Assembly: GCA_021324015.1 (NCBI GenBank) | Contig: JAJPJX010000136.1 | Location: 124,001 to 188,000, forward strand | Length of the DNA: 64,000 nt | Source of the DNA: Solibacteraceae bacterium | GTDB lineage: Bacteria > Acidobacteriota > Terriglobia > Bryobacterales > Bryobacteraceae | Direction: 5' to 3' | Shown: positions 10,904-14,252 of the stretch, piece by piece | Numbering within the stretch: position 1 is the first letter of the stretch | Layout: every line of letters begins with the position of its first letter | Program-made: the position numbers and the translations under genes | The notes under the pieces: generated by a model | What the model was told of the DNA's origin: nothing | The model's input: the letters and a program-made list of their open reading frames with translations, nothing else | The model's database searches: none

Positions 10904-11701
10904 ATGCTTCGTATACTGCATTTGGAAGATCGACAGGAGGACGCCTTTCTCATAGAAAATGCCATCCTGAACTGGGGCATTCCAGCCGAGTTTATCGTGG
11001 TCCGGGACCGGCCTGAATTTGTTTCGGCGCTGGAACAAAGCCAGTTCGATTTGATTCTGGCTGACAACGGATTGCCTGGCTTCGATGGGCTGGCCGCGCT
11101 AAAAATGGTCCGCCAACAATTTCCCAGCATAGGATTTATCTGCGTTTCAGGAGCGGCCGGCGAAAACCAAACCCGGGCAAGCTTTCAAGCTGGCGCGACC
11201 GATTATGTGCTCAAAGATGATCTCAGCCGTCTGGTCGCCACCGTGCGTCGTGAATGGGACAGAACGCAATTGCTGCGGATGAATCGCGGCATGGCGCGGT
11301 TGATCGCCGCCGTGCAGGAACTTTCTCTGGCGCGTGACCTCGATGGTGTTATGGCCATTGTCCGCCGCGCCGGGCGGGAGCTGACCGGCGCGGACGGGGC
11401 CACGTTTGTCCTGCGAGAGGGTGACTTGTGCCATTACGCCGACGAAGATGCGGTTGCGCCGCTTTGGAAGGGACAGAAGTTTCCATTAAGCGCCTGCATC
11501 AGCGGTTGGGTGATGCTCAACCGGCAGGCCGCCGTCATCGAGGACATTTACGCCGACCCGCGCATTCCGGCTGACGCTTACCGCCCGACCTTTGTAAAGA
11601 GTCTGGCAATGGTCCCGATTCGCACGGAAGCGCCTGTTGGCGCGATCGGCAACTACTGGGCCGCCGCCGCTTGCCGTCGGCGGAGGAAGTCGAGTTGTTG
11701 A
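10904..11701 (+). CDS. Response regulator-GAF protein (N-terminal part of a frameshifted sensor)
   Basis: 265 aa as read. Residues 1-120 are a CheY-like receiver: acidic pair LEDRQED (about 8-13), phospho-acceptor in DLILADNGLPGFDG (Asp54), ATDYVLKDD (Lys104). A GAF domain follows from about 135 and runs normally to AMVPIRTEAPVGAIGNYWA, after which the frame changes to an unrelated Arg-rich tail. The expected GAF C-terminus and the kinase continue in another frame from 11671. Base composition is lower in GC than the neighbours, which may indicate acquisition. It is the broken first half of a hybrid receiver-GAF-kinase, or a sequencing indel. Confidence 0.72.
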   Translation: MLRILHLEDRQEDAFLIENAILNWGIPAEFIVVRDRPEFVSALEQSQFDLILADNGLPGFDGLAALKMVRQQFPSIGFICVSGAAGENQTRASFQAGATDYVLKDDLSRLVATVRREWDRTQLLRMNRGMARLIAAVQELSLARDLDGVMAIVRRAGRELTGADGATFVLREGDLCHYADEDAVAPLWKGQKFPLSACISGWVMLNRQAAVIEDIYADPRIPADAYRPTFVKSLAMVPIRTEAPVGAIGNYWAAAACRRRRKSSC

Positions 11702-12495
11702 AAGCATTGGCCAACACTACGTCCGTGGCGATGGAAAATGTGCGCGTCTATAGCGAATTGGAACAGCGGGTGAAAGAGCGCACCGCGCAACTGGAAAGGG
11801 CCAATGCCAGGCTGGAGGAGGCCAACCGCGAACTGGAATCATTTGGCCATGCGGTCTCGCATGACTTGGCCGCACCGTTGCGAAGCATTCGGGGCTTTGC
11901 CCAAATGGCGTTGAAAGAAGGCGAGACCACACTGAATGAAAGGGGCAGGCAGTATCTGGCCATTGTGCAAAGCAGCGCCAGACAAATGCGGGAGGTGATG
12001 GACGACCTGTTGCGGTTGTCGCAGGTGGCTCGTGCCGAATTCAAAAAAGAGCAGGTCGATCTGAGCCGATTGGCGCAGGAAATTATCAAACAATTGTCCG
12101 CACATTCACCGGATAGGATCGTAGACGTTCAAATCACCGAAGGCATGGAAGTGGAAGCTGATTCTGGATTGCTCCGTATCGCCTTGGAAAATCTGCTCTC
12201 CAACGCTTGGAAATACACGGCGAAACGGGCGTCGGCCCGGATTGAGTTTGGAAAGATGACACAGCCGGACGGCTTGCAGGTTTATTGTGTCCGCGACAAT
12301 GGCGCCGGCTTTGACATGAAGCAGGCAGGCCACTTGTTTCAGCCTTTCAAACGGCTGCACCGGCAGGATGAGTTTCCGGGAACCGGCATCGGGTTGACGA
12401 CGGTCCAGCGCATCATTCAGCGGCACGGCGGCTGGGTGTGGGCTGAGGCGCAAGTAGAGAACGGAGCGGCGTTTTATTTCACATTGCCCCAGTGA
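11671..12495 (+). CDS. Sensor histidine kinase (C-terminal part of the frameshifted sensor)
   Basis: About 274 aa. It begins with the end of the GAF domain (LPSAEEVELLKALANTTSVA), then a coiled-coil linker, a HisKA dimerisation/phosphoacceptor helix with VSHDLAAPLRSI (phospho-His), and a HATPase_c domain with N-box ENLLSNAWKY, G1 DNGAGFD and G2 GTGIGLTTV. The sequence aligns with phytochrome-like and bacteriophytochrome-associated kinases. A TTG at 11671 could initiate it, but no ribosome-binding site is evident, and the domain boundary falls in mid-GAF. It is better read as one gene with 10904-11701 carrying a one-base loss (or two-base gain) within 11658-11671. Confidence 0.72.
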   Translation: MPSAEEVELLKALANTTSVAMENVRVYSELEQRVKERTAQLERANARLEEANRELESFGHAVSHDLAAPLRSIRGFAQMALKEGETTLNERGRQYLAIVQSSARQMREVMDDLLRLSQVARAEFKKEQVDLSRLAQEIIKQLSAHSPDRIVDVQITEGMEVEADSGLLRIALENLLSNAWKYTAKRASARIEFGKMTQPDGLQVYCVRDNGAGFDMKQAGHLFQPFKRLHRQDEFPGTGIGLTTVQRIIQRHGGWVWAEAQVENGAAFYFTLPQ

Positions 12496-13840: not shown

Positions 13841-13846
13841 TATACT
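13841..13846 (+). promoter_or_regulatory. -10-like box (TATACT) before the rhodanese gene
   Basis: TATACT ends 7 nt before the ATG at 13854, consistent with a leaderless transcript; no Shine-Dalgarno sequence is present. Confidence 0.5.
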
Positions 13847-13853
13847 GGCTGTC

Positions 13854-14252
13854 ATGAACCGGCGTACAGCGATCTGCACGTTGTTTGTAGGCGGCACTTT
13901 ATTCGCCGCCGGCACCCCCCCAGCCAAAAAGCTCACCGATGAAGAGCTGGCCAAGCTCCTGGAGAAGCGGGAGAACCTGTTCTTCCTCGATGTGCGCGAG
14001 CCCAGGGAGATCCAGCAACTGGGCAGCATCGAGGGCTACGTAAACATCCCGCTGGGGCAGCTTGAAAGCCGGCTCTCCGAGATCCCCAGGGACAAGCTGA
14101 TCATCACCGCTTGAAACCGCGGCGGAAGAGCCGCGCGTGCCGCGGACATTCTCAGCAAACACGGGTTCAAGGTCATTGGTTCGTGCGGTCTGGCCGAATG
14201 GAAGGACAAAAAGCATCCGCTCGTCTATCCCAGGAAGGACGAAAAGAAATAG
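13854..14252 (+). CDS. Exported rhodanese-like protein with in-frame TGA at the catalytic Cys (candidate selenoprotein)
   Basis: Read through TGA at 14112-14114, the frame stays open to TAG at 14250-14252, giving 132 residues. Residues 1-20 form a signal sequence with twin Arg (MNRRTAIC). A single rhodanese domain follows: LFFLDVREPREIQQLG, GYVNIPLGQLESRL, DKLIITA-[TGA]-NRGGRAARA. Rhodaneses carry CxxGxR here, and the TGA (codon 87) replaces precisely that Cys, with G and R in register. The 3' part (ADILSKHGFKV, GLAEWKDKKHPLVYP) is a normal rhodanese end. A hairpin with CCGCG/CGCGG stem and CGTGC loop starts 16 nt after the TGA. Either Sec insertion or a nonsense mutation; the position makes Sec attractive. 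Confidence 0.75.
14124..14152 (+). promoter_or_regulatory. Candidate bacterial SECIS hairpin in the rhodanese gene
   Basis: Upper stem 14131-14135 with 14141-14145 (5 GC pairs), apical loop CGTGC with G second and GU present. The loop begins 21 nt after the TGA. A short lower helix (14124-14127 with 14149-14152, one G-U) lies below a 3x3 internal loop. Spacing and loop G fit the published bacterial SECIS model as remembered. A competing GC hairpin at 14118-14135 is also possible, and GC-rich DNA forms hairpins by chance. Confidence 0.4.

What the first reader, a model, noticed from the sequence alone, without database searches (positions are those of the whole stretch)
13854..14252. Candidate selenocysteine rhodanese: TGA exactly at the catalytic Cys, with a SECIS-like hairpin
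Seen: a rhodanese-like frame is interrupted by one TGA (14112-14114), then stays open for 45 more codons with a normal rhodanese C-terminus. The TGA replaces the C of CxxGxR (NRGGR follows directly). A CCGCG/CGCGG hairpin with CGTGC loop lies 21 nt after it. Known: bacterial Sec is often at catalytic thiols, and SECIS hairpins have this spacing. Inference: a periplasmic (twin-Arg signal) selenoenzyme in sulfur or selenium transfer. Alternative: a TGC-to-TGA nonsense mutation.
Basis: partly seen in the sequence, partly recalled or inferred. Interest (0 to 1): 0.9.

Follow-up and report, generated by a model that had tools for sequence, protein, structure and literature searches.

The report
Selenocysteine rhodanese of Acidobacteriota
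This gene appears to read a stop codon as the rare selenium amino acid selenocysteine, exactly at the reactive site of a small exported sulfur-handling enzyme, and dozens of related bacteria share it; selenium-containing rhodaneses are already known, so it enlarges a known kind.

Summary
The finding is real. A 132-residue rhodanese (13854-14252, +) carries one TGA exactly at the catalytic residue of the CxxGxR loop. The genome has SelA, SelB, tRNA-Sec(UCA) and a SelD that itself contains a TGA. Of 105 matches in 200 genomes of the same order, the catalytic codon is TGA in 65, Cys in 32 (11 of another rhodanese type), Ser in 7, and TAA in one decayed extra copy. The SECIS hairpin (loop CGTGC) is under selection as RNA: its closing pair swaps C-G with G-C at two third codon positions (28 and 23 of 59), and the loop's Arg codon is CGT in 53 of 60 Sec genes against 49 of 483 Arg codons elsewhere in the same genes. 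Cys homologues lack this signal. So a nonsense mutation is very unlikely. Sec rhodaneses are listed in reviews (forms 1-5): a new member of a known kind. New here, as far as I found: a large exported acidobacterial subfamily in which Sec is the commonest state, with a second Cys in most Sec and many Cys forms and no Ser form seen. I infer a Sec/Cys pair handling sulfane sulfur in the cell envelope; that chemistry is untested.

The parts
13854..14252 (+). Selenocysteine rhodanese gene, 132 residues with U87, stop TAG included
13854..13913 (+). Signal-peptide-like N-terminus (first 20 codons; cleavage site not predicted by a tool)
   Evidence: Hydropathy rule: found in 62 of 66 Sec rows, 20 of 20 Cys rows, 5 of 5 Ser rows of the order
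14112..14114 (+). Sec codon TGA at the catalytic residue
   Evidence: 65 TGA, 32 Cys, 7 Ser, 1 TAA among 105 matches of the order
14112..14129 (+). Six-residue active-site loop U-N-R-G-G-R
   Evidence: Alignment A1
14131..14145 (+). SECIS hairpin: stem CCGCG/CGCGG, loop CGTGC at 14136-14140
   Evidence: Covariation, CGT codon bias, third-position pairing, codon shuffles, fold
14184..14186 (+). Codon of the second Cys (Cys111, in C-G-L-A-E-W)
13841..13846 (+). -10-like TATACT 7 nt before the ATG (leaderless-type start; suggestion only)
   Evidence: Read from the sequence; the pattern precedes 20 of 768 ATGs of the window by chance

Best explanation
The gene encodes a true selenoprotein: an exported single-domain rhodanese whose catalytic residue is selenocysteine, decoded from UGA by SelB and tRNA-Sec with a SECIS hairpin just downstream. 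That much is supported by comparison. The rest is inferred: after export the selenolate takes sulfane sulfur from thiosulfate, polysulfide or a persulfide, giving Se-S on Sec87; in most members Cys111, at the end of the neighbouring strand, attacks it, releasing sulfide or passing the sulfur on and leaving a Sec-Cys selenenylsulfide that a periplasmic thioredoxin-like reductant resets. So it would work as an envelope sulfane-sulfur (persulfide) transferase or reductase. The confidence given is for the Sec rhodanese; about 0.6 for a sulfane-sulfur role and about 0.35 for the Sec-Cys cycle.
For: In-frame TGA aligned with Cys of homologues. SelA, SelB, tRNA-Sec and a Sec-type SelD in the genome. 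Synonymous covariation of the SECIS stem and the CGT codon in its loop, absent from Cys homologues. dN/dS below 1 after the TGA. Rhodanese domain and fold. Loop of six residues as in sulfurtransferases (length rule recalled). Second Cys in 46 of 65 Sec genes, 9 of 20 Cys genes first read, none of 7 Ser genes of the order. In the model Sec67 and Cys91 (domain numbering) end strands 62-67 and 86-92.
Against: 5 of 63 genomes with the TGA gene show no SelB, two of them 92% and 97% complete. The window's own hairpin is not significant alone and competes with another fold. 11 of 61 Sec stretches lack a hairpin by my strict rule. The second Cys is missing in 19 of 65 Sec genes (3 of these have a Cys one place earlier), and its link with Sec could not be tested free of kinship (3 independent pairs). 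No gene context points to a substrate. The distance between the two residues was not measured. No selenium was measured.
Confidence: 0.95

Rival explanations
1. A TGC-to-TGA nonsense mutation or a sequencing error in an ordinary Cys rhodanese; the product is truncated or dead.
For: A single TGA in one genome would look like this. One decayed extra copy with TAA at this codon and a broken continuation does exist (L276 in G854, which also has an intact TGA copy, L207).
Against: The same TGA in 65 genes of the order and in others of the phylum; dN/dS below 1 after it; synonymous covariation and codon bias in the hairpin.
Confidence: 0.02
2. The Sec rhodanese has a plain transferase role, with no part for the second Cys: it moves sulfur between donor and acceptor in the envelope by a perselenide alone.
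For: 19 of 65 Sec genes and 11 of the 20 Cys genes first read lack the second Cys at its place; a clade with Sec and Gly-Gly keeps both Sec and Cys members.
Against: The second Cys is kept in most members of the main clade, Cys forms among them, and was seen in no Ser form of the order (0 of 7).
Confidence: 0.35
3. It carries or detoxifies selenium (or arsenic) rather than sulfur: a rhodanese that binds selenium on its Sec or reduces an oxyanion.
For: A rhodanese domain handles selenium in the tRNA selenouridine synthase (recalled; its title is in the reference lists seen). Weak likeness to MnmH and SelU models, 13.9 and 21.7 bits, far below their cut-offs.
Against: Cys-only forms occur in SelB-bearing genomes (16 of 19 such genomes), so the Sec form is not needed for Sec supply. 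The protein appears exported, away from SelD. No Pfam family among the neighbours that I scanned points to selenium or arsenic. The loop is six residues, not the seven of arsenate reductases and Cdc25 (rule recalled).
Confidence: 0.1
4. TGA is read as another amino acid by general recoding in this genome.
For: None beyond the open frame.
Against: TGA ends 21 of 41 mechanically picked ORFs of 150 aa or more in the window; the genome has tRNA-Sec.
Confidence: 0.01

Closest known systems
Sec rhodaneses forms 2 and 4 (PF00581, UxxG) of the prokaryotic selenoproteome reviews PMC13188914 (2026) and PMC9312934 (2022), seen as table passages
   Same: Rhodanese domain with Sec in a UxxG motif (here U-N-R-G)
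   Different: The reference proteins are not held, so kinship was not tested. The passages name no Acidobacteriota, no signal peptide and no second Cys. Some of my neighbours may belong to these forms.
NF041203 rhodanese_LYCAU, CxU motif (form 3)
   Same: Rhodanese with Sec
   Different: Sec two places after the catalytic Cys; window protein 34.3 bits against a cut-off of 115. CxU proteins turned up separately (L111, L112, L173, L178, L180, L183, L184).
PspE and GlpE, single-domain rhodaneses
   Same: Single rhodanese domain; PspE is a sequence match in the PDB search
   Different: Cys enzymes; window protein 28.6 bits against 102 (PspE) and 15.4 against 102 (GlpE)
Rhodanese domains of CoA-disulfide and persulfide reductases (3icr, 3nta, 8a56)
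   Same: Among the closest matches by sequence and fold; they reduce persulfides
   Different: There the domain is fused to an NAD(P)H-dependent flavoprotein; here it stands alone and appears exported
Rubrerythrin-fused Sec rhodaneses found here in another phylum (L179, L181, L185, L186)
   Same: Sec at the catalytic residue of UxxGxR
   Different: Extra C-terminal part with a rubrerythrin match in L185 (25.5 bits, cut-off 22.8) and a sub-threshold one in L179 (20.4); Gly-Gly instead of the second Cys; separate clade

Membership tests
Bacterial selenoprotein | In-frame TGA aligned with Cys in homologues | tested here: met
Bacterial selenoprotein | SelA, SelB, tRNA-Sec and SelD in the genome | tested here: met
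Bacterial selenoprotein | SECIS model: loop 3-9 nt, stem 4-16 bp, G in loop position 1 or 2, 16-37 nt from UGA, MFE at most -7.5 (passage of PMC13188914) | tested here: met
   Loop CGTGC, 5 bp, G second, 21 nt; -18.8 kcal/mol with 60 nt after the UGA. The hairpin alone is -6.5, and other folds win at 45, 54 and 66 nt; the program bSECISearch was not run
Bacterial selenoprotein | Selenium in the full-length protein | not testable with these tools
   Needs 75Se labelling or mass spectrometry
Rhodanese (PF00581) | Domain score over the cut-off and rhodanese fold | tested here: met
   47.8 bits against 22.2; top Foldseek match 3gk5, TM 0.81/0.90
Rhodanese (PF00581) | Six-residue loop CX4R of sulfurtransferases (rule recalled) | tested here: met
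   U-N-R-G-G-R, with Sec for Cys
Rhodanese (PF00581) | Sulfurtransferase activity | not testable with these tools
   Needs enzyme assay
Cdc25 or arsenate reductase type of rhodanese fold | Seven-residue loop CX5R (rule recalled) | tested here: not met
   Six residues
Sec rhodanese forms 2 and 4 | PF00581 with UxxG motif | tested here: met
   definition from passages
Sec rhodanese forms 2 and 4 | Close kinship with the reference proteins | not testable with these tools
   Reference sequences not held
NF041203 rhodanese_LYCAU (form 3) | Model score over the cut-off; CxU motif | tested here: not met
   34.3 bits against 115; UxxGxR instead
NF045694 TsoB (form 5) | Rhodanese/DsbD fusion with two Sec | tested here: not met
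   Window protein not listed for the model at E 0.1; one Sec, 132 residues

The most novel reading that the evidence does not exclude
An undescribed, mainly acidobacterial subfamily of exported rhodaneses that works as a Sec-Cys redox pair: the Sec perselenide is resolved by a Cys at the end of the next strand, making it a periplasmic persulfide or polysulfide reductase instead of a plain transferase. Sec is the prevailing and perhaps ancestral state of the main clade, with repeated Sec-to-Cys changes and one Ser clade that lacks both reactive residues.
Probability: 0.3. Interest if true: 0.65.

Novelty: new member of a known kind. Interest (0 to 1): 0.5.

Why it matters
It adds a well-supported selenoprotein family to a phylum for which the 2006 survey listed 3 selenoprotein families and 4 selenoproteins (passage of PMC1794560). 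The window protein reaches no NCBIfam cut-off, so such genes are liable to be annotated as truncated. SelB is over its cut-off in 254 of 396 sampled Acidobacteriota genomes, so selenium use looks common there. The synonymous covariation of the SECIS stem is a natural experiment on what SelB reads. The many Sec/Cys differences between relatives make it possible to ask what Sec buys in a rhodanese.

Tried and rejected
Nonsense mutation or sequencing error, and code reassignment, were set aside (shared TGA; TGA is a normal stop). The idea that the second Cys marks Sec enzymes came from the 101-row set, where 14 rows have it, all of Sec type; the order set corrected it, since 9 of 20 Cys forms have it too. 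The idea that Ser forms mark loss of the Sec machinery came from two SelB-less genomes (G359, G202); it was dropped, since 4 of 5 Ser-bearing genomes have SelB and so has G787, which holds a further Ser form.

Conserved gene context was looked for and not found: of seven window proteins searched in 53 loci, three matched in one locus each and four in none; most of these loci reach only about 1.5 kb on either side. Sec and SelB go together only weakly as a statistic (58 of 63 against 108 of 137 genomes, p 0.025, kinship not corrected). Rfam gave nothing for the window and the SelB locus at gathering scores.

The SECIS rule (loop start +17 to +24, loop 3-6 nt, G in position 1 or 2) was fixed after looking and. 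Rows left out before counting: L010, L011 and L015 as copies or near copies; identical 48-nt stretches, leaving 61 Sec stretches from 66 rows; own and L258 from the 59-row alignment because they had served to draw the structure. In one search, one of 92 rows was unreadable and one gene of G830 was read twice (66 Sec rows are 65 genes). I had first left 15 weaker matches unread. The statistics and the tree do not include these 15.

Full report
Observation. The frame 13854-14252 encodes 132 residues with a single TGA at 14112-14114, then 45 codons to TAG. Pfam places one rhodanese domain across the TGA (47.8 bits, cut-off 22.2).

Sec machinery. The window's genome has one SelB over the cut-off (381.6 bits), SelA (489.4 bits), tRNA-Sec by covariance model (69 bits, gathering score 47) and by ARAGORN with anticodon UCA, and SelD (368.9 bits). 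SelD has a TGA of its own in the stretch AAG-U-ASK, which I take from memory to be its reactive position, so it is probably a second selenoprotein. TGA ends 21 of 41 mechanically picked ORFs of 150 aa or more in the window, so it is not generally reassigned.

Relatives. The first scan gave TGA at the same column in L009, L010, L011, L012, L016 and L017, and Cys in L013, L014 and L015. The eight genomes of these nine loci all have SelB over the cut-off (L011 shares its assembly with L009). In 396 genomes of the phylum 316 have some rhodanese match. Of the 20 matches with stops inside that the cut list showed, 17 are TGA and 3 TAG. 14 TGA lie at the catalytic column (own included), 2 belong to the CxU form, 1 is a terminal stop, and the 3 TAG are terminal stops. 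SelB is over the cut-off in 254 of 396 and present in 12 of the 14 genomes with the catalytic TGA; the two misses are 75% and 72% complete.

The order. In 200 genomes, 95 have a match at 1e-15, with 105 matches in all. I read 90 genes (92 rows, one unreadable, one gene twice): 65 TGA, 20 Cys, 5 Ser. The other 15 were read: 11 Cys of another rhodanese type, 1 Cys of the subfamily, 2 Ser, and 1 TAA. The TAA copy (L276, genome G854) runs out of homology just after the stop, while an intact TGA copy (L207) stands elsewhere in that genome: what true decay looks like. SelB was found in 166 of 200 genomes (164 over the cut-off), in 58 of 63 with the TGA form and 108 of the other 137 (p 0.025, kinship not corrected). 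Of the five without it, G887 and G771 are 92% and 97% complete; I cannot explain these beyond gaps in assemblies.

Selection. In the 9 of 13 pairs where both values could be computed, dN/dS is below 1 on both sides of the TGA (0.11-0.38 before, 0.17-0.55 after), somewhat higher after it in 8 of 9; the other 4 pairs were saturated on one or both sides.

SECIS. Codon shuffling that keeps the protein and the gene's codon use gave, for 18 Sec genes, a mean best hairpin of -9.11 against -3.09 (sd 0.95, 0 of 2000), and for 4 Cys or Ser controls z -0.87; one of the 18 (L086) had no hairpin by the rule. In the order: 61 distinct Sec stretches -7.53 against -4.08 (0 of 500; 50 of 61 with a hairpin by the rule), 20 Cys z -0.17, 5 Ser z -0.73. 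The structure drawn on 8 sequences (covariation 0.335 against 0.131, 0 of 500; slid versions at most 0.170) was tested on 59 others: 0.229 against 0.093, 0 of 500, slid versions at most 0.107. There the number of pairs changed on both sides did not exceed shuffles (3 against 3.0), while the cells so changed did (41 against 19.2). The closing pair is C-G in 28 and G-C in 23 of 59; both bases are third codon positions. At fourfold-degenerate codons it is Watson-Crick in 53 of 60 Sec stretches, 3 of 17 Cys and 2 of 5 Ser. The codon in the loop is CGT in 53 of 61 Sec stretches (60 have Arg there), against 49 of 483 Arg codons elsewhere in the same genes (p 4.6e-37, rows treated as independent though they are kin); 0 of 20 Cys and 1 of 5 Ser homologues have CGT. 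Selection on the protein does not explain this. L009, L012, L017 and kin use a hairpin with loop GGA or GGC at +20, and L087 and kin one at +18. In the window itself the hairpin alone is -6.5 kcal/mol; it is in the minimum-energy fold with 60 nt (-18.8), another fold wins with 45, 54 and 66, and its central pair has probability 0.48. The published bacterial model was read as passages of PMC13188914, and its constraints are met.

Evolution. The tree of 115 rows on 105 columns is poorly resolved in part. It needs 9 changes among Sec, Cys and Ser; well-supported branches force at least 4 for Sec. Several Cys groups are nested in the Sec-rich clade, and the Ser rows form one clade (100/100) inside it. 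This fits repeated Sec-to-Cys change, but the direction was not tested.

Second Cys. Where rhodaneses usually have Gly-Gly after strand 5, the window protein has Cys-Gly (Cys111). In the order Cys stands at this column in 46 of 65 Sec genes (3 more have it one place earlier; 12 have Gly, 4 Met), 9 of 20 Cys genes (1 more one place earlier) and none of 7 Ser genes. In the 101-row set 14 rows have it, all of Sec type. In the model (pLDDT 87.8, pTM 0.79) the Sec ends strand 62-67 and the Cys lies at the end of strand 86-92 of the domain. That these strands are neighbours is recalled from the rhodanese fold, not measured.

Export and context. A signal-like N-terminus by a hydropathy rule of my own was found in 62 of 66 Sec rows, 20 of 20 Cys and 5 of 5 Ser; RR stands in the first 8 residues in 16 of the 62, and a lipobox-like pattern in 7 of the 62. 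No signal-peptide program was at hand. Upstream is an S41 peptidase, downstream a protein with a partial M49 match; this context was not found in 53 loci save one distant S41.

Known kinds. Sec rhodaneses are in print. The 2026 review lists forms 1-5, forms 2 and 4 as PF00581 with UxxG (passages); the 2022 review lists four entries under rhodanese or rhodanase (passages); the Sargasso Sea paper counts 3 sequences (passages), and the ocean survey has several rows (passages). The 2006 survey gives Acidobacteria 3 families and 4 selenoproteins, and its only 'rhodanese' is in a reference (passages). PMC12013277 counts 3 known selenoprotein genes in Occallatibacter riparius, unnamed in the passage seen. 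Searches of the held library listed no paper that I recognised as describing a rhodanese selenoprotein of Acidobacteriota; for most hits I saw listings only, one search showed 25 of 46, and most subscription journals are not held. No NCBIfam model reaches its cut-off with the five proteins scanned.

Verdict. Supported by comparison: Sec decoding of a rhodanese shared by many relatives. Inferred: export, sulfane-sulfur chemistry in the envelope (about 0.6), and a Sec-Cys cycle (about 0.35). It is a new member of a known kind, with a possible new variant of the active site.

Noticed in passing
window 10904-11701 and 11671-12495, +: A receiver-GAF frame and a HisKA-HATPase frame overlap in different frames; they look like one signalling gene split by a frameshift near 11670-11700.
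   Followed up: partly
L074:1531-1533 (own genome): SelD of the window's genome has an in-frame TGA of its own, in AAG-U-ASK, so it is probably a selenoprotein too.
   Followed up: partly
L085, L105, L129, L130, L262, L267, L270, L274, L275, L277, L290: Rhodaneses with Ser at the catalytic residue and no second Cys; those in the tree form one clade inside the Sec-rich clade. They may be non-catalytic binding proteins.
   Followed up: partly
L179, L181, L185, L186: Sec rhodaneses with an extra C-terminal part, rubrerythrin-like in L185 (over the cut-off) and L179 (below it), in another phylum.
   Followed up: partly
L111, L112, L173, L178, L180, L183, L184: CxU-type rhodaneses, with TGA two codons after the catalytic Cys, in Acidobacteriota and in another phylum.
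   Followed up: no
L199 and L216 (G830:C555:8492-9280): Two Sec rhodanese genes side by side in one genome.
   Followed up: no
L276 (G854:C313:3587-3844): A decayed second copy of the gene with TAA at the catalytic codon, in a genome that also has an intact TGA copy (L207).
   Followed up: partly
window 13841-13846 and the site before 14280: -10-like hexamers 7 and 6 nt before the ATGs of the rhodanese and of the M49-like gene suggest leaderless mRNAs; 3 of 41 ORFs show the pattern against 20 of 768 ATGs.
   Followed up: partly
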